39,310 bases of DNA from Acidobacteriota bacterium (lineage in GTDB: Bacteria > Acidobacteriota > Terriglobia > Bryobacterales > Bryobacteraceae), in contig JANXMS010000585.1 in the NCBI GenBank assembly GCA_025354525.1, positions 1 through 39,310 on the forward strand, in the 5' to 3' direction. The position numbers and the translations under genes are program-made. The first letter of the stretch is position 1; each line of letters begins with the position of its first letter. Shown here in pieces: positions 1 through 8,446 of this stretch. Under the pieces are notes generated by a model. That model did no database searches, was not told where the DNA came from, and worked only from the letters and a program-made list of their open reading frames with translations.

Positions 1-460
1 CTCCAGAGGCGCTCCCGAGTTAAGGTGGTTCGCGAGGGCTCGATCAGCACGAGCATTTTAACCTGCCGACCGTGTTCGCTGGCGGCGGGACCGGCAAGGT
101 CCACGGTGGCAGGCACATTCGGTTTAACGTTGGGGTGCGCCCCGAACGGATCGGCGATTCGACGGGCAAGATCGCACATCTCACCGAGCTGTAGAACCCA
201 TCCAGAGGCGCTCCCAAGTTAAGGTGGTTCGCTAGGGCGAGATCAGCACGGGCACTTGAACCTGCCGACGGTGCTCGCTGGCGGCGGGACCGGCAAGGTC
301 CACGGTGGCAGGCACATTTGGTTTAAGACGGGCACAACGTTGGAGTTCGGCCCGAGCGGATCGACGGGCAAGAACGAACATCTCACCGAGTTATAGGACA
401 CCCCAGAGGCACTCCCAAGTTAGGGTGGTTTGCTCGGGCTCGACGTGCAAGAGCAACCTT
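1..460. repeat. Degenerate ~200-bp tandem repeat, two full units and a partial third
   Basis: Unit 1 begins near base 2, unit 2 at 201 and unit 3 at 402, giving a period of 199-201 bp. Each unit opens with a version of ccagaggcgctcccaagtt. Units 1 and 2 also share long identical blocks, for example ggcgggaccggcaaggtcc and ggtggcaggcacatt, and both end with catctcaccgag. Unit 3 stays similar for only about 60 bp and forms the 3' end of the minus-strand frame 391-837. Read on the minus strand, unit 1 is open to the window edge, with a product containing VLIEPSRTTLT. The same frame of unit 2 has two stops. This suggests duplication and decay of a gene's 3' end rather than a regulatory array. There is no other gene in 1-390. 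Confidence 0.75.
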
Positions 461-862: not shown

Positions 863-951
863 GCCGAAGTGGTGGAACTGGTATACACAGCAGACTCAAA
901 ATCTGCCGGGGTTCACTCCCCATGTGGGTTCGACTCCCACCTTCGGCACCA
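863..951 (+). tRNA. tRNA-Leu (anticodon CAA)
   Basis: The acceptor stem GCCGAAG pairs with CTTCGGC and is followed by A and an encoded CCA (949-951). The anticodon stem GCAGA/TCTGC encloses the loop CTCAAAA, giving anticodon CAA, which reads UUG leucine codons. The long variable arm and the T arm GTGGG-TTCGACT-CCCAC fit a class II leucine tRNA. The gene is intact. Its last 21 bp form the attachment-site core of the element that follows, and its 3' two-thirds also encode, on the other strand, the C-terminus of the integrase. Confidence 0.97.
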
Positions 952-2095
952 ATTTATGTTCAACAATAGCGGCCTTTGGGGCCGCTTTTTCGTTGTGTGC
1001 CGCAGATGTGCCAAAACGCTTCTCATGTACTTTGTCCATGGCGGTTTGGGCGTTACGCTGGAGTTCTTGGCAGAACTTCGCGTAGTGTTTGCGAACGATT
1101 GCGGGATCATCACCTAGGGCGTTTGCTGCGTCCTCGATGGTCCCCCCGTTCACTAGAATATTGGTTGCCAGCGTATGCCGGAAGCGATGGCTGATCGCGT
1201 TCTCGACGCCGGACTTACGATAGACGGCTCTCAGCCCCTCGATAGCCACCTTCACAGCGTGAAGGGCTTGGCCGTTGCCGTTCCAGAAATAGTAGGGGCA
1301 GTCAGCGGTCGCGCCTTTGGGCGGCGGTAGCGCGGACAATGCTTCAGTGACCTGGGGGGTCAGCTTGCCCATGAAGTGTTTGCCCTTCTTGGTGGCGTAG
1401 AGTTCGATAGAGTCGCCCTTGACTTGGTCCCGACGCAATCGTACCACGTCGCCAATACGAAGCCCATAGGCGGCCAGGAGGTGAACCATGGCGGTTGCTC
1501 GTTTGCGCTCGTAATCGTACAGGCCATAGGTTCGGGCGGCTTCGAAGATGCGGAAAATCTCCTCATCGGAGTACGGCTCCCTCGGCTTCGCCTTCGGCTC
1601 TTTCGGCATCTTCATATCGCTTGCGATATCGGCCTCGCACCACTTCCGTTTCATGCGGAAGTCCCAGAAGCCCCGCAGGGTCTGAAGTTCCTTCTGCCAG
1701 GTCAGGGGAGATATCGGGCGGCTTTGCTTATAGCGGTCCAGGTGTTCCAGGGTGAAGGCGTCCACTTGGTCGACGTCGGCCGATTTCGAGAACTCAACCA
1801 AGCGGTTCATGATGCGGCGGTACTTGTGCATCGTCGTCGGCTGGGCGTCCTGGGCGGCGATGAAGGCGGCGGTTGCGTCGGTAACCGACTTGCGGACCTT
1901 GCCGGTCTCGATCTCGGCCTCAAGCTCGGCCATGCGGCGGCGGGCGCGGTCGTAGTTGGTCGTCTTCAGGCTTTGCCGGATGCGCTGGCCTCGCACGTCT
2001 CCATCACAATGAAGCGGGCAGTCGCACTTTCGATAGGCGCGGCCCTTCTCTTTGTGCGGGCAGGTCGGAAGATGGCGGCGGTAGAGGTCGAGCAC
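896..2095 (-). CDS. int: Tyrosine recombinase (integrase) of the element
   Basis: The 399-residue product should catalyse site-specific recombination between the tRNA-Leu attB and the element attP. The N-terminus has a Cys-rich patch (C12, C24, C26, C30), which I associate with acidobacterial integrases, followed by a SAM-like core-binding region (about 70-160). The catalytic domain shows R213 (GLRIGD), lysines around 236-239 (KKGK), H303-R306 in HRFRH and the nucleophile Y338 in RKHYAKF. The second active-site His expected in an LGH motif is replaced by Asp (LGDD), a variant I believe occurs in related integrases. The start is GTG at 2095, 2 bp after the excisionase-like gene. The last 19 codons lie within the tRNA gene, so the C-terminus depends on integration state. 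Function is near certain; directionality control is inferred. Confidence 0.95.
   Translation of the reverse strand: MLDLYRRHLPTCPHKEKGRAYRKCDCPLHCDGDVRGQRIRQSLKTTNYDRARRRMAELEAEIETGKVRKSVTDATAAFIAAQDAQPTTMHKYRRIMNRLVEFSKSADVDQVDAFTLEHLDRYKQSRPISPLTWQKELQTLRGFWDFRMKRKWCEADIASDMKMPKEPKAKPREPYSDEEIFRIFEAARTYGLYDYERKRATAMVHLLAAYGLRIGDVVRLRRDQVKGDSIELYATKKGKHFMGKLTPQVTEALSALPPPKGATADCPYYFWNGNGQALHAVKVAIEGLRAVYRKSGVENAISHRFRHTLATNILVNGGTIEDAANALGDDPAIVRKHYAKFCQELQRNAQTAMDKVHEKRFGTSAAHNEKAAPKAAIVEHKLVPKVGVEPTWGVNPGRF
931..951 (+). repeat. attL core (tRNA 3' end)
   Basis: These are the last 21 bp of tRNA-Leu, covering the 3' half of the T arm, the acceptor strand and CCA. They are identical to 8426-8446, and identity stops immediately after CCA. 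This is the classical tRNA 3'-end crossover region of tyrosine integrases. Confidence 0.92.
968..990 (+). terminator. Rho-independent terminator for tRNA-Leu, supplied by the element
   Basis: A 7-bp stem AGCGGCC/GGCCGCT closes a 5-nt loop and runs into a T tract at 986-990, 17 bp after the tRNA CCA. It lies inside the element and inside the integrase coding sequence of the other strand. In the integrated state it would end tRNA transcription and protect the convergent integrase mRNA from read-through. Confidence 0.75.
995..1013 (+). repeat. Candidate arm-type integrase site, left copy
   Basis: The sequence gtgtgccgcagatgtgcca matches 8302-8320 near the other end at 18 of 19 positions, in the same orientation. 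Each copy contains TGTGCC twice, 11 bp apart. One copy near each att core, in direct orientation, fits arm-type binding sites for integrase or excisionase. This copy also lies within the integrase coding sequence. Confidence 0.5.
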
Positions 2096-2097
2096 GG

Positions 2098-2313
2098 TTA
2101 GCGGATCCTCTCAGCGTACACCGATCGGGCGATGGACTCGGGAATACGAATCGTAATCTTTCGACGCTTGCCCCGCCCGGCCTCGCTGCCTTGCTTGAGC
2201 ACGCCGGGGACATCCTCGAACCATCGAAGGATAGTGTCCTCGCTAAAGCCCCACATTTCCGCCAGGGTACGCGGGGAGAAATGGCGGTCGAAAATGGCGG
2301 TATCGGTAGGCAT
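2098..2313 (-). CDS. Excisionase-like small helix-turn-helix protein
   Basis: This 71-residue protein has an N-terminal helix-turn-helix resembling HTH_17/excisionase folds (PRTLAEMWGFSEDTILRWFED) at residues ~13-33, followed by a basic stretch and a second short helix. Such proteins immediately upstream of a tyrosine integrase usually bend DNA to favour excision or act as AlpA-like activators. The frame is open further upstream to 2517, but that extension overlaps the capsid gene 3' end and lacks plausible protein character, so I use the ATG at 2313. The gene ends 2 bp before the integrase GTG, implying joint translation. The HTH class is well supported. The excisionase role is inferred from position. 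Confidence 0.8.
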   Translation of the reverse strand: MPTDTAIFDRHFSPRTLAEMWGFSEDTILRWFEDVPGVLKQGSEAGRGKRRKITIRIPESIARSVYAERIR

Positions 2314-2419
2314 GGTTCCGGTCGGGCTCCCTAAACTCAGTCGGTTAGTTTGCAAGGCCGGAGTTATGCCCCGGCCCCGCGTCAGACGGCAGGGTGCGAA
2401 CGTCCCTCCCGCCCTATGA

Positions 2420-2453
2420 CTGCATCGCGCCCCGTGGATGGCTATCGATGCAG
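2420..2453. repeat. Inverted repeat downstream of the capsid gene
   Basis: The 8-bp arms CTGCATCG and CGATGCAG are separated by 18 bp, about 12 bp past the capsid stop codon in the 151-bp gap before the excisionase-like gene. There is no U tract, so it may be an operator, a processing site or a Rho-dependent end rather than an intrinsic terminator. Nothing else was recognised in this gap. Confidence 0.4.
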
Positions 2454-2464
2454 CAATCTCGTGG

Positions 2465-4282
2465 TTAAGCTCCAGGGTTGGCGTAAATCCCGCGATGGTT
2501 GATCGCACCGGCCCCAAAGTCCAATCGAACCTTCATTTCGAGGCCGTCGACTTCGAAGCCCAACCGAGTCTCAATCTGCGGACCTTCGGCACCGGAGAGG
2601 TATGCGTATTCGAGCGCTCCATTCAAGTCGGGTGCGCTTGCCAAATACCAACGGGTGGCCGAAACCGCATCAAGTCTCGGTTCAACGATAAGGGTCAGCA
2701 ACCCGGCGAAGGCGTTTACGGTCGCGGCAGAGTTCGGCGTGATGGTCGCCAAGTACTTCATCGCAGTGTTTTCCAGGCTGGCTGGAACGATCAAGAACGC
2801 CGGGGAAACGTCGATGCTGGTAACGCCGTCAACCCCCTTCTGCGAACGCATCGAAAGCTTGGCAGCGGCCAGAGTGGTGTCGGAGATTACGGCCCCAGAC
2901 GCTGCCAGGTTCCCGTGCGACGCGTGGAACAGATTCACGCCATCGCTCATGGCAGGACCAGCGCCAGAGTTCGCCGCAAGCAGTGCCACCAAAGTCCGCG
3001 CTTCCAGATCGACAGCCGCCTGTGCAGCACCGGACGGCAGAGCATCGAACGCGCCCAGGTCGTCGTTGATGATGGCTTGGCGCGTCAGTCCGATGATTTT
3101 GCCGTAGGTCTTGACGGCATACGCTTCCTTGCCCTCAGCCATGGTTCCGTACTTAAATTCACCGGATTGGCTTACCTGTTCGAGCTGCGGGTGTTCGCCC
3201 AAGCGAACAAGGCTCAGGGTTCGAAAGTCTTGCGCTTGGCGCTTGCGGCAGATTTGTTTCAACGCGGCGGGCGCGGCCAGGTAGCGTTCCTGCAAAACGC
3301 GGGCGGCAACGTTGCCGAGGATGTTTGGGAAGTCGCTGGTACCGTGCAGGCCCGACAATTTGACCAGGCCCAGAGCAGCCCCGCTCAACCGCAGCGGATC
3401 GCTAGGGATGTCGGAATCACGCAAGCCGAACCCGTTACGCAAATACGAGCGGCTCATATCCAGCATGCTCATGGACACATACGGGCGCCCCGCGTCGCTG
3501 GGAGTCTTGCCGGTCGCTCGGGAGTAGATAGCGTCTTCCAAGCCCAGCCGCAATTTATCGGTCGAATCTTCCCCGAATCCCCAATGGATGCAGGTGGCGG
3601 TTTTGTCGCCTTCGTCCGCCAGATGGTCGATTACCTTAGCGCGGAAGGCGTCTAGGCTCATCCCGGATTGGACGGCATTACTGGCGAGGTGCTGGGTATT
3701 GGTTCGGTTTCCGAGCTGCATAATCTCGGCGGCGCGGGTGCGCTCCGCAGTGGTTTCGGTGCTCGGTTGGTTCAAGCTTAGTGAAGTCATTGGGTCTCCA
3801 GTGGAAAAGGCCAGCACGACGGCAGCGCCATCGGCAGGGATAGGAACAATCGAAATCTCGATTAGTTCGGATTGAGTCACAGTCAGGCGGCGTAAGCCGG
3901 TCGTCTCATTCGGTTGTTCGGCGACGGTGATAATGGCGAGTCCGATTGACACCGCTCGACGGATGCCAGCGGCCACGTCCTCGAAGATTTGCAAAGCCAG
4001 CGGGCTCGTACCAAATTCGAGTTCGGCCAGAATCTCAGGCCCTTGTCGCCAGACGCGGACCACGCGGCCCACCTGGGAAGCGGAGTCTTCTTTGTGGTCC
4101 AACAGCACCGGCATGGTGCCGATTGCGGCACGGGTCGTGTTCATGCCCTCGGGAGCGATGGATAGCTCGTACTGCCCCGACGCGTCCCGGCGTTGCACGG
4201 CGGCCCCGGAATAGGCCCTCACGGTGCACCGGCGGGTAGCGCGGTCAACGGTGGTGAGTTGGGCGGCTACGGTTTCAGTCAT
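2465..4282 (-). CDS. Prohead protease / HK97-fold major capsid protein fusion
   Basis: The product has 605 residues. Residues 1-155 are a caudoviral prohead protease: the catalytic His lies in LLDHKED (H63), the Ser in RRAVSIGLA (S112), and the typical ELIEISIVPIPA strand follows. Residues ~165-605 resemble Mu gpT/HK97-type major capsid proteins in the protease-capsid fusion family, with a helical region (~175-260) that could act as a delta/scaffold segment before the shell domain. The protein would form a procapsid and mature it. A strong Shine-Dalgarno (GGAGG) precedes the ATG, which overlaps the previous stop as ATGA. A second in-frame ATG at 3790 has its own GGAG five bases upstream, exactly at the domain boundary. 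No portal, terminase or connector gene accompanies it. Confidence 0.92.
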   Translation of the reverse strand: MTETVAAQLTTVDRATRRCTVRAYSGAAVQRRDASGQYELSIAPEGMNTTRAAIGTMPVLLDHKEDSASQVGRVVRVWRQGPEILAELEFGTSPLALQIFEDVAAGIRRAVSIGLAIITVAEQPNETTGLRRLTVTQSELIEISIVPIPADGAAVVLAFSTGDPMTSLSLNQPSTETTAERTRAAEIMQLGNRTNTQHLASNAVQSGMSLDAFRAKVIDHLADEGDKTATCIHWGFGEDSTDKLRLGLEDAIYSRATGKTPSDAGRPYVSMSMLDMSRSYLRNGFGLRDSDIPSDPLRLSGAALGLVKLSGLHGTSDFPNILGNVAARVLQERYLAAPAALKQICRKRQAQDFRTLSLVRLGEHPQLEQVSQSGEFKYGTMAEGKEAYAVKTYGKIIGLTRQAIINDDLGAFDALPSGAAQAAVDLEARTLVALLAANSGAGPAMSDGVNLFHASHGNLAASGAVISDTTLAAAKLSMRSQKGVDGVTSIDVSPAFLIVPASLENTAMKYLATITPNSAATVNAFAGLLTLIVEPRLDAVSATRWYLASAPDLNGALEYAYLSGAEGPQIETRLGFEVDGLEMKVRLDFGAGAINHRGIYANPGA

Positions 4283-4503
4283 CGAACCTCCAGGCCAGCG
4301 ATACGGGACGCGGTCAGGAACTCGGCATCCTTGGCGGCTACCGAAACCCTATCGGCGTCGGCAGCGGTCAGAAGCCCCCCGGCCATGCTGTCGGCTTGGT
4401 CGGGCGTAATCGCGTATTCCCAAGCCACCAGGCCCGCAGGGGTTTCGCCGCAGCAGACCAGGCGCAAGGGATTGGTAGCAATGCAGATTCCAGGGTGAAT
4501 CAT
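4279..4503 (-). CDS. Small protein of unknown function, 74 aa, coupled to capsid gene
   Basis: I do not recognise this 74-residue product. It has an N-terminal hydrophobic stretch with a CC pair (LVCCGETPAGL), then a mildly acidic Ala/Asp-rich segment, and no clear membrane helix. Its ATG overlaps the upstream stop (ATGA at 4500-4503) and its own stop overlaps the capsid ATG (4279-4282), so three genes are translationally coupled. Position directly before the capsid fusion would suit a head-decoration, connector or scaffold-assisting role, but nothing in the sequence proves this. Confidence 0.7.
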   Translation of the reverse strand: MIHPGICIATNPLRLVCCGETPAGLVAWEYAITPDQADSMAGGLLTAADADRVSVAAKDAEFLTASRIAGLEVR

Positions 4504-5036
4504 TTGGCAACCTCGTTCAGTTTTGGCAAGTTGGCCAGGTCAATGATTACGAACATGTACGGCCTGTTATCCCCGATTGGGCCCGATTTCCCTAGCCCTC
4601 CATCGGGTGCCGCCGATGCCCAATTCTCCCGGCTCCAATCGTTCGACTCAAATAGGGCGAGCGAACCAAAGCTACAGGGGCAGGCCATCGTCTCGCCTTC
4701 ATTTGAGAACAGCGCTATCCCAACAAAACGGAACCGCGTCTTTTGTTCGAAGAGGTATTGGATGATACACGGCTGGCAGATAGCCGCGGCTTGAATTGCC
4801 AGATGCGGGTGCAGGAACGCGGCGAACTCCTTGGCCACCTGAAGGGTCGCCATCAACCCCGAGGCGAATTGAGTTCGTGCGCCAGGCGGTCGAAACTCAG
4901 GCGGCGGCAATACGTGGTCTAGCCATCCCTTTTTAATCCAGGACTGGAGCGTGATTGGAACCATGCCGAGAGCTTTCGCCGCTTGCGTTGTGGTGAGCAG
5001 TGGTTGGTTTGTGGTGGTGGCCATCTTCAATGTCAT
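4500..5036 (-). CDS. MerR-like helix-turn-helix protein with unknown C-terminal domain
   Basis: The 178-residue product starts with a MerR/HTH_17-type winged-helix motif (residues ~12-38, containing TTTQAAKALGMVPITLQSW), so it should bind DNA. The remaining ~130 residues form a region I do not recognise, with cysteines (CQPC, CPC) that could bind metal. It is the first gene after the strong promoter at 5048-5077. With the ATG at 5036 the leader is only a few bases, so an almost leaderless message or use of the ATG at 5024 is possible. It may regulate the capsid operon through the palindrome in its own promoter, or act as a small-terminase-like DNA-recognition protein. The latter is speculation based only on its HTH and position. 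Confidence 0.75.
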   Translation of the reverse strand: MTLKMATTTNQPLLTTTQAAKALGMVPITLQSWIKKGWLDHVLPPPEFRPPGARTQFASGLMATLQVAKEFAAFLHPHLAIQAAAICQPCIIQYLFEQKTRFRFVGIALFSNEGETMACPCSFGSLALFESNDWSRENWASAAPDGGLGKSGPIGDNRPYMFVIIDLANLPKLNEVAK

Positions 5037-5042
5037 ATCCTG

Positions 5043-5077
5043 ATACTAGTATATAGCGAGATGCGAGTGGGTGTCAA
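5043..5077 (-). promoter_or_regulatory. Strong sigma-70 promoter with palindromic operator, capsid operon
   Basis: On the minus strand a perfect -35 TTGACA (5077-5072) is followed by TATACT (5053-5048, 18-bp spacer) or TATATA (5055-5050, 16-bp spacer). The perfect 10-bp palindrome ATACTAGTAT (5043-5052) covers most of the -10 and the start region, as an operator would. The 208-bp gap to the upstream gene (5037-5244) shows nothing else I can assign apart from a run of eight G. Confidence 0.8.
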
Positions 5078-5244
5078 ACGAAATCTTTTCGACGTGCAAA
5101 TAATTTCGGGGGGGGTTATCTGAATGCTCCATCTGAAATTTCCGTGAAAGTACTTTTTGGCACCACTACATTGAGGTGCTTGGCAGACACTCCACCCCCG
5201 TGCTTTTGCCCACCGGAGTACCTTTTTACCCCCGGGGCACCCTA

Positions 5245-5493
5245 TCAGCCCCCGATTTCGGCATATTCTGCCGTTCTCATGTCGCTCATTCGTTCCCGTT
5301 TGGAGTAGCAGCGCGTGCATAGTGGAACGCAGTAACTCAATCGCAGCTTCTCGGCTGGGTGCGTCCGCTCCCTCATCAGGTGGCATCGGTTCGCCGGGTT
5401 GATAAATCCCCTCGTTTCGCAATCCATGCAAATGTGATGCTCAGCCAGGAAACCGGCGACGTAGCGGCGCAATAGGGATGCATGATCGGTCAT
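5245..5493 (-). CDS. Small zinc-finger / HNH-like protein, 82 aa
   Basis: The product has two CxxC pairs (CMDC near residue 22 and CTRC near residue 61) separated by a segment with NRCHLMRE. This spacing and the central Cys-His resemble a reduced HNH/treble-clef zinc site, but the canonical HNH catalytic residues are not clearly present. Its ATG overlaps the stop of the upstream gene (ATGA, 5490-5493), so it belongs to the same transcript. HNH proteins often flank phage packaging genes. Here the protein could be a nuclease, a structural zinc finger or a host-takeover factor. Only the metal-binding prediction is reasonably safe. Confidence 0.65.
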   Translation of the reverse strand: MTDHASLLRRYVAGFLAEHHICMDCETRGFINPANRCHLMRERTHPAEKLRLSYCVPLCTRCYSKRERMSDMRTAEYAEIGG

Positions 5494-5693
5494 CGTTTTT
5501 CTCCATTTCGTTCTTGAAGGCGATCCAGTAGCGCGTGCGCTGGGTGCGGGTTGTTTCCTTCTCGGGCGTCAGCCAGGGCCAAGGCGAGCGTCAGAACGAT
5601 TACCTCGGGCGATTGGTCGCAGACAGGCGCGACGTATCGGCCCAGTCGCGCATCGGCCCGGAGGCCGGTCATGAATTGCTCGAACGGGGTCAT
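5490..5693 (-). CDS. Small protein of unknown function, 67 aa
   Basis: This is a mostly helical 67-residue protein (starting MTPFEQFMTGLRADARLG), without signal peptide or membrane segment. I do not recognise it. The reading frame is open upstream to 5906, but that part runs through the iteron field and has biased composition, so the ATG at 5693 with a nearby GAGG is preferred. It is the first gene after the putative origin and is coupled to the next gene by an ATGA overlap. The iterons end ~30 bp upstream and may therefore also control its transcription. Confidence 0.6.
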   Translation of the reverse strand: MTPFEQFMTGLRADARLGRYVAPVCDQSPEVIVLTLALALADAREGNNPHPAHALLDRLQERNGEKR

Positions 5694-5723
5694 CGGGGAG
5701 CCTCGGGTGTGGTTGGGCTTCCA

Positions 5724-5916
5724 TTCCACGTTCCACGTATTCCACGTTTTTTCCCTATATAGCCCCCCACCGATATCACCGTTTCTTGCATCTGTGCCTC
5801 TCCTATGAGAGAAAAACGTGAAATACGTGGAATCATTGGAAAATAACGTGGAACATACGTGGAATAATGGCCGGAAACCGTGGAACACACGTGGAATGAA
5901 TCGCACAAACGTGGAA
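5724..5916. repeat. Iteron field, probable replication origin of the element
   Basis: The octamer ACGTGGAA occurs exactly at 5825, 5846, 5857, 5889 and 5909. Variants lie at 5816 (ACGTGAAA) and 5878 (CCGTGGAA). Start-to-start distances from 5825 are 21, 11, 21, 11 and 20 bp, so all sites lie on one DNA face. The inverse octamer TTCCACGT occurs at 5724, 5731 and 5740. The two clusters face each other across a 68-bp spacer holding a T6 tract and CTATATAG. The field fills the gap directly after the primase-helicase gene. This is the organisation of plasmid and SaPI-type origins, in which a Rep protein binds iterons beside an easily melted region. Function is inferred. Confidence 0.8.
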
Positions 5917-5919
5917 CGC

Positions 5920-7980
5920 TCACGCTCCCTTCCTCTTAAAGAACCGGCCTTGGTTGCTGGTGCGTGTCGGCTCGAACCCCAAGAGGCGGAGACACCGGGC
6001 CACGCGGTTTCGGTCGACCTGCTTCATGTCCTTTAGGGGTATCCCCAACGCCGTAAGCACTTCTGTAGGGGTCACTTCATCGCGGGCGGTGGTGATTTCT
6101 TTGATCCTGTCAGCCCATAAATCGCCCTCGACTCGGAGTGATGCTTCAACAGCAGCTTGCTTGATCCAGTCCTCAGAGTCGGGCCACCAAATCGCCCCCC
6201 CCCGATACAGGGCGACGGCTTCGGCCCATAGCTGATCGCGGTCCCTCTTAAGTGCTTCGAGGTCGATTGACCCAACAAAGAACGGCCAGAATCGGCGGTT
6301 GCCGGTAACATCCCGCAGGTACTCGGAATCATTCGTGGAACCTCCGAAAATACACTGGCGCCGAACGTCCACGGGAATCTTTCCGTAAGGGCGGCGTAGC
6401 GTTTCAACACGACGTGAAACGAAGGTCTTCACGATCTCGACCTGGGAACGGGCCAACGTGTCCAGTTCGCCCCACTCGATAATCCACTTGCCAAAAAGTT
6501 GGAGGCTTGCATCTTTGCTGTGAAGATCCGGCAATTGATCCGTAAAGTATTGATCACCGGCCAGTCTCCGCAGCGCGGTTGATTTCCCCCTCCCTTGCGG
6601 CCCTTCCATAATCAACATGTGGTCTGCCTGACAACCCGGTTCCATGACGCGGGCAACTGCGCTTATCAGCCACCAGCGGCCAGCGTTCGAGGTATAGGAA
6701 CCCCCGGCCCCACCTAGGTACTTACTTACCCACGAATCCACACGCGGCACGCCGTCCCACTCCAGACCGTTGAGCCAGTCCCGGAGAGGATGAACCGTGT
6801 GAGCCATCGCGACGGCATCAGCAACGGCGCCAACCATTTCTTGGCCAACGAATAGCCCCTCTCCCTGCATCCAAATGGAAATGTTCATGATGTCGGCGTC
6901 GAAAAGGTCCCTCGGTACTGTGCCTCCAATCGGCGTATCGCGCACCAGGCGAACCCGCTGGGAGAACTCATCGAACTGGAGAGCTCCGGCCCACTCCGGC
7001 GCATTGCGGAGGGCGATGTCGGCGTTATAGTTGCATGACTTGATCCCACCGGGCTCACCCGTCTTTTTGTTGGGCTTGCCTCGCAGCAGCAGTTCTTTCC
7101 AGCCCTCGCGTTCTTCGTAATCGGGGTGCTCTTCGTCTTGGTTGGTCGCCCATTCCACGGCACGCGCCACCTGCCGATTGAACTCGGTAGACGGCCCCGC
7201 CGGGTACAGCTTACAAACGCTTGCGGCCATCGTCCGCATGTGCGACTCGGGCGGGATCTCCTCGCAGCGTGCTTTGCTTACCGCGATCAAAGCGGCTTCG
7301 ATCTCCGCTTGGTTCATGCCCTTACTTCGGTATGAACCAGCCAAACTGAGCAAGTCATTATGCTGGGTCGGGTGCTTGATCTTCTCCGGCATAACAAACG
7401 GTGCCTTCTTCGCCCCTGCCGGATTCAAGCTCAGCAGCCAATCGAGCGATTCTTGACATTCTTCCACCTCCAGAACCGAACCAGGCCAGAGGTCGCCGGT
7501 AACGCAGAAGTAGCGGCCATGAGGATAGATTTCAACCGCTCCGTCAGCATGCTTGAAGTTGGCCGAAGCTTCAACACGTCCCCGGCACCACATCTTGATA
7601 CCGCTCCCGCTCGGGGAGACTTCGGCGTAGGTGCCAGCGAAACGTCGCATGATGGGCACGGCCCAATCTTTCAGGCGTCCGGCATCGTCCAGGCAGTCAT
7701 CCAAGTCGACGCCGGTATATGGGTCGTCAGCGGTGAAGACGAACCCGATACCAGCGGCGTTTCGCAACGTCGGCAGTGCGTCCATGACGTCGGCGTACTC
7801 CGACCATGTGGAAGGGTCGTTAGACTTCGCCGGTCTGCCGTTCGTCTGGTAGGGAACTTTGCGTCCATCATCATAGCGCCAGAGAACCCACTGCCGGAGG
7901 TCGTACAGTTCGGACGGAACGCGGAACGGGCGAGCAGGCGGCAGCGTCACCGGCATCGGTTGAACCGACGCCGCGCTCAT
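5920..7980 (-). CDS. Primase / VapE-family replicative helicase
   Basis: The 686-residue replication protein has two parts. Residues ~20-190 resemble the prim-pol/phage primase N-domain, with VDLDDCLD (acidic motif) and SPSGSGIKMWCRG, the kind of motif seen in bifunctional primase-polymerases. Residues ~400-640 are a VapE-type (PF05272) superfamily-3-like helicase, with Walker A GPQGRGKST near residue 460, the EWGELD motif, RRPYGKIPVDVRR, and GSTNDSEYLRDVTGNRRFW. The protein should unwind and prime the element's DNA from the adjacent iterons. The ATG overlaps the preceding stop (ATGA at 7977-7980). The first iteron begins 4 bp beyond its stop codon. VapE-like proteins are typical of satellites and prophages. 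Confidence 0.93.
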   Translation of the reverse strand: MSAASVQPMPVTLPPARPFRVPSELYDLRQWVLWRYDDGRKVPYQTNGRPAKSNDPSTWSEYADVMDALPTLRNAAGIGFVFTADDPYTGVDLDDCLDDAGRLKDWAVPIMRRFAGTYAEVSPSGSGIKMWCRGRVEASANFKHADGAVEIYPHGRYFCVTGDLWPGSVLEVEECQESLDWLLSLNPAGAKKAPFVMPEKIKHPTQHNDLLSLAGSYRSKGMNQAEIEAALIAVSKARCEEIPPESHMRTMAASVCKLYPAGPSTEFNRQVARAVEWATNQDEEHPDYEEREGWKELLLRGKPNKKTGEPGGIKSCNYNADIALRNAPEWAGALQFDEFSQRVRLVRDTPIGGTVPRDLFDADIMNISIWMQGEGLFVGQEMVGAVADAVAMAHTVHPLRDWLNGLEWDGVPRVDSWVSKYLGGAGGSYTSNAGRWWLISAVARVMEPGCQADHMLIMEGPQGRGKSTALRRLAGDQYFTDQLPDLHSKDASLQLFGKWIIEWGELDTLARSQVEIVKTFVSRRVETLRRPYGKIPVDVRRQCIFGGSTNDSEYLRDVTGNRRFWPFFVGSIDLEALKRDRDQLWAEAVALYRGGAIWWPDSEDWIKQAAVEASLRVEGDLWADRIKEITTARDEVTPTEVLTALGIPLKDMKQVDRNRVARCLRLLGFEPTRTSNQGRFFKRKGA

Positions 7981-8216
7981 CGGCTAACCTCGGTATGCCG
8001 GATGCGGGCGCGTTTGGCGACGGCCCAAAGCTGACCGATAGCGGCCTGAAGGTCCTCGTCGTCAAGATTGCGTATCCACTGATAAGCCGAGAGCAGTTCG
8101 GCCTTCAGAGCGCCGCGTTTTGTCGGCGTCGGCTTCTTGGCGGCCCTAGGCGACGCCTTCGCCGAAACTTTCCTATTCCGCTTTTGCGCGGAGTCGGGTA
8201 CGATGGGAGTGTTCAC
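7977..8216 (-). CDS. Small basic protein, first gene of the replication operon
   Basis: This 79-residue protein has a strongly basic, Lys/Arg/Ala/Pro-rich first half (KRNRK, AAKKPTPTKR) and a helical second half (LLSAYQWIRNLDDEDLQAAIGQLW). I do not recognise a family. The start is GTG at 8216 with AAGGA nine bases upstream. Its stop overlaps the primase-helicase start, so the two are translated together. It might be a nucleic-acid-binding accessory of replication. It could equally be a regulatory leader gene. Confidence 0.65.
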   Translation of the reverse strand: MNTPIVPDSAQKRNRKVSAKASPRAAKKPTPTKRGALKAELLSAYQWIRNLDDEDLQAAIGQLWAVAKRARIRHTEVSR

Positions 8217-8229
8217 GGAAAAGTTCCTT

Positions 8230-8259
8230 AGGCCAGCCTTCCCGCTGGCCTTCTTTTTT
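8230..8259 (+). terminator. Rho-independent terminator facing attR, in the replication-operon leader
   Basis: The 8-bp stem AGGCCAGC/GCTGGCCT with a 6-nt loop is followed on the plus strand by TTCTTTTTT. No plus-strand gene ends here, so it either stops antisense transcription through the element or serves an unseen small RNA. On the minus strand the same hairpin sits in the 5' leader of the replication operon, 14 bases before its GTG, next to the Shine-Dalgarno. Confidence 0.7.
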
Positions 8260-8301
8260 GGAATTTTCTAGTGAACGGTTCAACCCTTCGCAAACTGAGC
8301 C

Positions 8302-8320
8302 GTGTGCCGCAGGTGTGCCA
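8302..8320 (+). repeat. Candidate arm-type integrase site, right copy
   Basis: The sequence gtgtgccgcaggtgtgcca differs from 995-1013 at a single position and lies in direct orientation about 105 bp inside attR. It shows the same internal TGTGCC pair. See the left copy for interpretation. Confidence 0.5.
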
Positions 8321-8371
8321 GAGATATGCGGATTGAGCGCTTTTAGCGCCTTAAGCCCCACATCGCCAGCC

Positions 8372-8401
8372 AATGAAAACAATAACTTACGTGTTTTCAT
8401 T
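8372..8401. repeat. 10-bp inverted repeat next to attR
   Basis: The perfect arms AATGAAAACA and TGTTTTCATT flank a 10-bp spacer, 24 bp inside the attR core. The position fits a binding site for excisionase, a host bending protein or a dimeric repressor of the leftward replication operon. I see no convincing sigma-70 promoter nearby. Confidence 0.5.
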
Positions 8402-8425
8402 AGCTTACATCCTCGTCACTTTCTC

Positions 8426-8446
8426 CGACTCCCACCTTCGGCACCA
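8426..8446 (+). repeat. attR core
   Basis: A perfect 21-bp copy of the tRNA-Leu 3' end (931-951) not attached to any tRNA body. Host sequence resumes at 8447, and the convergent aldolase stop codon lies just 4 bp further on. Before integration the tRNA gene would have abutted that gene. Confidence 0.92.

What the first reader, a model, noticed from the sequence alone, without database searches (positions are those of the whole stretch)
931..8446. A 7.5-kb capsid-encoding satellite with no visible packaging, portal or tail genes
Seen: perfect att repeats, integrase, excisionase-like HTH, primase-VapE helicase, an origin-like iteron field, and a full-length prohead-protease/major-capsid fusion, with only four small unassigned proteins besides. 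Known: capsid-forming PICIs of Proteobacteria and Firmicutes bring capsid together with other head and packaging genes, and most other satellites bring no capsid at all. Inference: this element may build its own (perhaps smaller) shell but borrow portal, terminase and tail from a helper, a more reduced design than I know, in a phylum where satellites are little studied.
Basis: partly seen in the sequence, partly recalled or inferred. Interest (0 to 1): 0.88.

Follow-up and report, generated by a model that had tools for sequence, protein, structure and literature searches.

The report
Satellite carrying only its own shell
A small piece of parasitic DNA in an Acidobacteria genome carries a complete virus shell protein but none of the usual parts for loading or delivering DNA, and similar stripped-down elements turn up in unrelated bacteria, so this looks like a repeated way of living off viruses, with one partial precedent in Staphylococcus.

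Summary
Window 931-8446 is a 7.5-kb insertion in tRNA-Leu(CAA) with perfect 21-bp ends; four congeners have the site empty. It carries integrase, AlpA-like protein, VapE-type helicase, an iteron field and a 605-aa protease-major-capsid fusion (catalytic residues kept, HK97 fold predicted). No portal or large terminase is found in the element or, with the families tried, in the host genome. It is not a one-off relic: a congener has the same P178-P74-capsid module (capsid 61% identical) in a different chassis at tRNA-Gly, and nine further tRNA-bounded 7.5-11.7-kb elements (eight alphaproteobacterial, one from another acidobacterial class) carry this capsid family without portal or TerL. Another congener has, at the same tRNA-Leu, a sibling with the same chassis but TerS, cement and gpW, apparently a capsid-forming satellite. 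Best reading: a shell-only phage satellite, related to capsid-forming satellites, that makes (part of) a small capsid and borrows portal, motor and tail. The mechanism is inferred. The idea is not wholly new: cos-type SaPIs carry Ccm, a capsid-protein homologue that co-assembles with helper capsid protein. New here: an intact protease fusion, repeated occurrence across the capsid tree, and Acidobacteriota/Alphaproteobacteria.

The parts
863..951 (+). tRNA-Leu(CAA), integration target
   Evidence: ARAGORN; Rfam
931..951 (.). att repeat, left copy (3' end of the tRNA)
   Evidence: 21-bp perfect repeat; empty site in four congeners
896..2095 (-). tyrosine integrase, 399 aa (the ORF runs into the tRNA)
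   Evidence: PF00589 2.6e-9; 92.7% identical to the sibling at the same tRNA
2098..2313 (-). AlpA/excisionase-like HTH, 71 aa (named by eye and position)
   Evidence: no Pfam or PHROGs hit to the longer ORF; 72% identical to the sibling's 71-aa protein
2465..4282 (-). prohead protease-major capsid fusion, 605 aa
   Evidence: residues H63/S112/E142 conserved; AF2 pLDDT 86.7, HK97-fold matches; third codon positions vary most
4279..4503 (-). P74, unknown, overlaps the capsid start by 4 bp
   Evidence: 45% identical homologue at the same place in L120
4500..5036 (-). P178, MerR-like HTH protein, first gene of the capsid operon
   Evidence: 40-42% identical homologue in L120; AF2 pLDDT 72.6 from two sequences, best PDB match MerR-type CvkR 7xn2 E 7.8e-4 (TM 0.42 by query)
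5048..5077 (-). sigma-70-like promoter (TTGACA-18-TATACT) ahead of P178
   Evidence: the count is not above shuffles (1 found, 2.9 expected)
5245..5493 (-). P82, small Cys-rich protein, weak HNH relative
   Evidence: phrog_2323 1.9e-4; 63% identical to the sibling protein next to TerS
5490..5693 (-). P67, unknown
   Evidence: 72% identical in the sibling, 57% in L120
5724..5916 (.). iteron field, origin-like
   Evidence: 8 ACGTGGAA copies; inverted arms
5920..7980 (-). primase/VapE-type helicase, 686 aa
   Evidence: PF05272 3.6e-75; phrog_256 4.1e-87
7977..8216 (-). P79, unknown
   Evidence: overlaps the VapE start; only Pfam matches far under their cut-offs, none in PHROGs
8426..8446 (.). att repeat, right copy

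Best explanation
A tRNA-integrated phage satellite that brings its own protease-major-capsid protein and a MerR-like DNA-binding protein and takes portal, packaging motor and tail from a helper. Steps: helper infection or induction; excision by integrase and AlpA-like protein; replication from the iterons by the VapE-type helicase; expression of P178-P74-capsid; assembly of a small capsid from the satellite capsid protein (preferred: alone; possibly mixed with helper protein) on helper portals; self-cleavage by the fused protease; loading by the helper motor; joining to helper tails. Shown: insertion, gene content, absences within the searches made, conservation and predicted capsid fold. Inferred: every functional step. 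Historically it looks like one chassis whose head module has been exchanged or cut down relative to capsid-forming relatives.
For: Insertion with tRNA-derived ends and empty sites. A congener element (L120) keeps P67, P178, P74 and capsid in order (57, 42, 45, 61% identity) with an unrelated integrase and a Prim-Pol/D5-type replicase. Codon-position differences in the capsid gene 0.32/0.24/0.55, as under purifying selection. Of the 80 best capsid relatives kept from named genomes, 43 are tRNA-bounded; 32 of these carry TerL+portal, 2 one of them, 9 neither; L093 and the window make 11. No portal/TerL profile hit at E<=1 in the 11 bounded elements. Sibling at the same tRNA-Leu: integrase 92.7%, AlpA 72%, terminal 294 bp 90% identical, but with TerS, cement, gpW and, read by eye, a capsid C-terminus. 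Protease-to-capsid linker: window 175 residues; 26 capsid-forming-type elements 158-182; 31 phage-type loci 198-237.
Against: No helper known; no portal (PF05136, PF04860), TerL (PF05876, PF03354) or PF05065 capsid found in the own genome, so any helper must come from outside, be of another type or lie in a gap. No induction, transcript or particle data. A portal or motor too divergent for the profiles cannot be excluded. Linker length follows kinship: only 2-3 independent contrasts, and the cut-off was set after seeing the data. The sibling is read from unjoined contigs. P74 and P178 have no known function.
Confidence: 0.66

Rival explanations
1. Ccm-like size redirection (a narrower form of the best explanation, so the odds overlap): the satellite capsid protein takes only some positions (for example pentamers) in a shell built mainly of helper capsid protein, making small mixed capsids and hurting the helper.
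For: Proven mode for SaPIbov5 Ccm, a capsid homologue found in pentamers only and unable to form capsids alone (PMC8569155, PMC5052747, passages).
Against: The protein here keeps an N-terminal protease with the catalytic residues and a full-length capsid domain, as its relatives in head-complete elements do; the SaPIbov5 paper reports no protease identified in that island.
Confidence: 0.27
2. Decayed prophage or dead relic of a capsid-forming satellite.
For: The same-site sibling has more head genes; the capsid family is otherwise a phage and satellite family.
Against: Genes open, ends perfect, sites empty in four congeners, the same three-gene module kept in another genome with third-position-biased change; on the capsid tree the neither-portal-nor-TerL label needs 7 changes, at least 3 on well-supported branches.
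Confidence: 0.1
3. Hyperparasite: the element uses a capsid-forming satellite such as the sibling, rather than a phage, for terminase and portal.
For: Shares ends, integrase, AlpA, P67 and P82 with the sibling, so shared regulation and packaging signals are plausible.
Against: No such sibling was found in the own genome; capsid proteins of the two are only 25% identical.
Confidence: 0.07
4. The capsid protein is a decoy or compartment used against phages, not for transfer.
For: Interference by a capsid homologue is known for Ccm (PMC5052747).
Against: A protease domain is kept (catalytic residues in 9 of the 11 bounded elements; L171 has a Clp-type protease instead, L174 by similarity), and all 11 have an integrase inside their ends.
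Confidence: 0.06

Closest known systems
cos-type SaPIs (SaPIbov5) with Ccm
   Same: Integrated satellite with a capsid-protein homologue, small capsids, helper portal, motor and tail (PMC8569155, PMC5052747, PMC10690885, passages).
   Different: Ccm comes without a protease, cannot form shells alone and sits in pentamers of a mixed shell; here a protease-capsid fusion of phrog_4523, other hosts, a VapE replicase and a MerR-like partner gene. No direct sequence comparison with Ccm was run.
Capsid-forming PICIs (cf-PICI)
   Same: Own capsid and protease in a small integrated element; the congener sibling and 32 of 80 loci look like this type.
   Different: cf-PICIs encode TerS, TerL, HNH, portal and connectors as well (definition seen in PMC10690885); here all but capsid+protease (and perhaps a P82 HNH relative) are missing.
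Streptomyces satellites MulchRoom/MiniFlayer
   Same: Satellites with own capsid genes.
   Different: They carry TerS, TerL, portal, scaffold and adapter (PMC10690885, passages).
PICMI, P4, PLE
   Same: Small satellites (PICMI: integrase, AlpA, primase).
   Different: They bring no capsid protein of their own (PICMI: PMC10803314 passages; P4 scaffold Sid: PMC10690885 passage; PLE: abstract start of PMC10945586).
Phages with protease-capsid fusion (e.g. Rhodobacter phage RcKemmy, Stenotrophomonas phage S1)
   Same: Same capsid family, 29-41% identity in the 20 listed of 124 records.
   Different: TerS-TerL-portal-capsid plus tail genes in the four records opened (TerS unlabelled in one), and a longer protease-capsid linker.

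Membership tests
Phage satellite (general) | Discrete integrated element with integrase and att repeats | tested here: met
Phage satellite (general) | Lacks genes needed to make virions alone | tested here: met
   no portal, TerL or tail family among the nine proteins; no portal/TerL profile hit
Phage satellite (general) | Mobilised by a helper phage | not testable with these tools
   no particle or induction data
cf-PICI | Own major capsid protein and protease | tested here: met
cf-PICI | Own portal, TerL and connectors | tested here: not met
cf-PICI | Own TerS | tested here: inconclusive
   no profile hit in the window; P178 has only a phrog_57 match at E 0.49 and a MerR-like fold
cf-PICI | HNH endonuclease by the packaging genes | tested here: inconclusive
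   P82 hits phrog_2323 at 1.9e-4 only
cos SaPI with Ccm | Capsid-protein homologue without portal/TerL | tested here: met
cos SaPI with Ccm | Capsid homologue without protease | tested here: not met
   protease fused, catalytic residues conserved; no direct comparison with Ccm was run
cos SaPI with Ccm | Mixed shell, Ccm in pentamers only | not testable with these tools
   needs cryo-EM
PICMI | No capsid genes; integrated at fis | tested here: not met
   capsid present; tRNA-Leu site

The most novel reading that the evidence does not exclude
Shell-only satellites are a recurrent, separately evolved class in Acidobacteriota and Alphaproteobacteria: each builds a whole small capsid from its own self-cleaving protease-capsid protein, with the linker shortened relative to phages so that the shell fits its 7.5-12-kb genome, and plugs in a foreign portal, motor and tail; some also bring a tape-measure protein and so may set tail length.
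Probability: 0.42. Interest if true: 0.78.

Novelty: new variant of a known kind. Interest (0 to 1): 0.64.

Why it matters
It would fill the gap between satellites that remodel a helper's shell and those that bring all head genes, and suggest that capsid identity and the portal-motor unit can be uncoupled in evolution. It gives a natural test of whether a capsid protein can accept a foreign portal, and a set of self-cleaving capsid proteins in which linker length can be held against capsid size. It also points to capsid-bearing satellites in Acidobacteriota and, in number, in Alphaproteobacteria, which the cf-PICI host list in the paper seen (PMC10803314) does not name. A full-text search for 'phage satellite' with 'Acidobacteri' gave no paper, and none of the 12 listed of 553 papers is about such elements; the library is open-access only.

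Tried and rejected
P178 as a portal or TerL remnant: rejected; MerR-like wHTH with a beta C-terminus, best structural match CvkR; no viral-library match at E<=0.001. P178 as TerS: open; the sibling has a real TerS (phrog_57 1.5e-20) just after P82, the slot of P178 here, but contigs of that genome also carry another gene before the portal, HTH-like by eye in L221 (no family hit) and weakly MerR in L222 (6e-4). P178 shows no detectable relation to the upstream genes of the other elements, has no relative in viral contigs and only two short weak matches, besides itself, in 200 class genomes; its L120 homologue weakly matches PADLOC mad1 (2.8e-4). P74 as gpW: no match. Helper in the own genome: none found. 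The short-linker contrast is not significant once kinship is counted. L124, L130, L183, L185, L191 and L198 also lack both genes in the stretch held but have no bounding repeat (several cut by contig ends), so they are left out of the count of complete elements; L183 and L185 were used in the tree as MCP-only, L124 and L130 as other. Tandem repeats at the window start: none scored.
Full report
The element. The window holds a 7,516-bp insertion between perfect 21-bp repeats, 931-951 and 8426-8446, the first being the 3' end of tRNA-Leu(CAA). Eighteen of 19 genomes of the genus, the own one counted, match the right flank at least in part. Of six sites fetched, four (L210-L213) have the tRNA followed by the right flank, so the insertion is real; the other two (L209, L214) keep only 23 bp of the att beside the right flank. 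L209 proved to hold a sibling element; what fills L214 (L216) was not resolved. The organism is taken as Acidobacteria because a congener, G565, shares sequence with an Acidobacteria MAG contig, L120.

Genes. On the minus strand: P79, primase/VapE-type helicase, iterons, P67, P82, P178, P74, protease-capsid fusion, AlpA-like protein, integrase. Four-base overlaps tie P178-P74-capsid into one operon (read); a good promoter-like site lies just before P178, though the number of such sites is not above chance. Eight of the nine ACGTGGAA motifs of the window cluster in 193 bp; shuffles give 1.2 per window. PADLOC finds nothing in six small window proteins.

The capsid protein. It matches phrog_4523 (9.3e-164) and PF25209 with an S78 protease domain. 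Residues H63, S112 and E142 are conserved in 29, 30 and 30 of 30 aligned relatives, the one miss being a gap; that these correspond to the HK97 protease triad is recalled, not tested. In the wider set they are kept in 66 of 69 proteins; L171, L174 and the phage-type L008 differ. AlphaFold2 gives mean pLDDT 86.7 (pTM 0.58) and Foldseek returns HK97-fold capsids (TM 0.4-0.65 by target in the 50 listed), among them HK97, SaPI1 and cf-PICI EcCI2. Against the congener copy, codon positions differ by 0.32/0.24/0.55.

What is absent. My TerL and portal profiles, which hit one or both in 65 of 80 capsid loci, hit no ORF >=45 aa of the 11 complete elements at E<=1. A further 51 ORFs that I picked from 10 of the 11 elements (47 of the 94 left-over ORFs listed, plus four others; none from L120) gave no portal or TerL in Pfam (all 9 families seen) or in the 25 of 33 PHROGs families shown. 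The own genome (97% complete, 633 contigs) has no second phrog_4523 capsid and no PF05136, PF05876, PF04860, PF03354 or PF05065. PF05876 also missed G561, whose TerL is seen only as its nuclease half, so that negative is weaker.

A second copy and a sibling. In the genus, 3 of 19 genomes have a match to the capsid: the own one, G565 (63%) and G561 (27%). G565 (L120) carries P67, a zinc-type protein (weak PF09889), P178, P74 and capsid in the same order, bounded by a 47-bp repeat of tRNA-Gly, 7,958 bp. Its integrase is unrelated, and its replicase is of Prim-Pol/D5 type, with 34% identity to the window's over 247 aa only. So the capsid module occurs in two chassis. G561 has at the same tRNA-Leu an element with the window's integrase (92.7%), AlpA (72%), P67 (72%), P82 (63%), VapE (49% over 393 aa) and end sequence (90% over 294 bp). 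After P82 comes TerS (phrog_57 1.5e-20), where the contig ends. Next to AlpA come a cement protein (PF09956 3.9e-26), gpW (2.3e-14) and, read by eye, the end of a capsid gene. Two short contigs of the same genome hold a GpA-type TerL end (Pfam on one; the other 98% identical), lambda-type portal, a gene between them that is HTH-like by eye in one and weakly MerR in the other, and in one also a capsid. That these belong to the sibling is inference; the contigs are not joined.

How widespread. The genome-collection scan kept the best 80 of 523 relatives. Forty-three lie between a tRNA and a repeat of its end (14-63 bp): 32 with TerL and portal (9.9-16.7 kb), 2 with one of the two, 9 with neither; 37 have no such repeat. 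Repeats of 14-15 bp (e.g. L166, L195) are weaker evidence of ends. With the window and L093 (G379, same phylum but another class; found in a search of 396 phylum genomes with 7 hits, the own one counted) there are 11 complete elements with neither gene: window 7.5, L120 8.0, L093 7.5, L171 9.4 (to the inner repeat of a composite), L166 9.7, L174 9.8, L188 11.2, L199 11.2, L145 11.5, L135 11.7, L195 11.7 kb. TerS-like genes sit beside the capsid in L093 (weak) and L199, and in the cut or unbounded loci L185 and L005. L166, L188, L195 and L199 carry tape-measure proteins. I did not scan the 32 head-complete elements for tail genes beyond four tape-measure queries. As a contrast, 13 TerL+portal loci without a nearby integrase held no tRNA gene at all.

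Tree. On 79 capsid proteins (quick ML tree; 13 MCP-only, 28 capsid-forming-type, 31 phage-type, 7 other), the MCP-only label needs 7 changes, and starred branches force at least 3; window and L120 are sisters (100). Window+L120, L093 and L185 fall on the phage side (support 82, not starred); L166+L188 and L171+L174+L183 fall with capsid-forming-type elements (84, 87); L135, L145, L195 and L199 lie outside both. L094 and L199 have long branches, so their places are unsure.

Linker. Between the protease's E142 column and capsid D317, 31 phage-type loci (4 named phages; the rest contigs with TerL and portal and no integrase found near) have 198-237 residues, 26 capsid-forming-type elements 158-182, and the MCP-only set 166-230 (n 12; window 175, L120 181, L093 177, L185 166). 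L171 carries a Clp-type protease instead, L174 by similarity, so their 230 and 228 are not comparable. Without these two, 32 of 34 satellites but 0 of 31 phage-type loci lie under 195; L188 (210) and L199 (200) do not. The cut was chosen afterwards, and only 2-3 contrasts are independent. A link between this region's length and capsid size is stated, with citations, in PMC5052747 (passage), which also notes a shorter such region in Ccm. The result fits a smaller shell but does not prove one.

Reading. Known satellites either remodel the helper's shell (P4, PLE, SaPI1; the last recalled), bring a partial capsid homologue (Ccm of SaPIbov5), or bring the whole head (cf-PICI; MulchRoom/MiniFlayer). 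This element lies between the last two: an intact, probably self-cleaving capsid protein but no portal or motor. Because the protein keeps its protease and full capsid domain I favour an own shell over a mixed one, roughly three to two. Papers: passages only of PMC8569155, PMC5052747, PMC10690885, PMC10803314, PMC11389934 and PMC10187409; other titles from search listings; the original cf-PICI, VEIME and tycheposon papers were not seen. Among the titles and abstract starts listed by searches (several of them capped lists) I saw none describing shell-only satellites outside the SaPI case.

Noticed in passing
L122-L194 (32 loci): Many tRNA-bounded 10-13-kb (one 16.7-kb) elements, mostly in Alphaproteobacteria, with TerL-portal-capsid and, in most, TerS, gpW and integrase: capsid-forming satellites of cf-PICI type outside the host list of the paper seen. 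Tail genes not scanned for in full.
   Followed up: partly
L166 5203-7389, L188 4517-6556, L195 12387-14576, L199 6667-9996: Portal-less satellites carrying tape-measure proteins (and a phrog_52 tail protein in L195, a neck/tail-completion protein in L188), suggesting control of tail length.
   Followed up: partly
L171 9239-11227 (and L174 9197-11191): Capsid protein fused to a Clp-type protease instead of S78 (Pfam on L171; L174 by similarity); L171 looks like two satellites in tandem at tRNA-Arg.
   Followed up: partly
L221 2589-3281 and L222 1416-2060 (G561): Two nearly identical TerL-end and portal stretches differ in the gene between them: a variable cassette next to the portal.
   Followed up: no
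L135 12770-13606, L145 12897-13655: putAbiC abortive-infection-like and DprA/SLOG-like genes carried as cargo.
   Followed up: no
L094 7168-14025 (G319): Capsid fusion next to a VapE/D5-like gene and a large serine recombinase, no portal or TerL profile hit: possibly a serine-integrase version; ends not found.
   Followed up: no
window 1-420: Three diverged near-copies of a ~200-bp stretch just outside the element, seen by eye; Tandem Repeats Finder scored none.
   Followed up: partly
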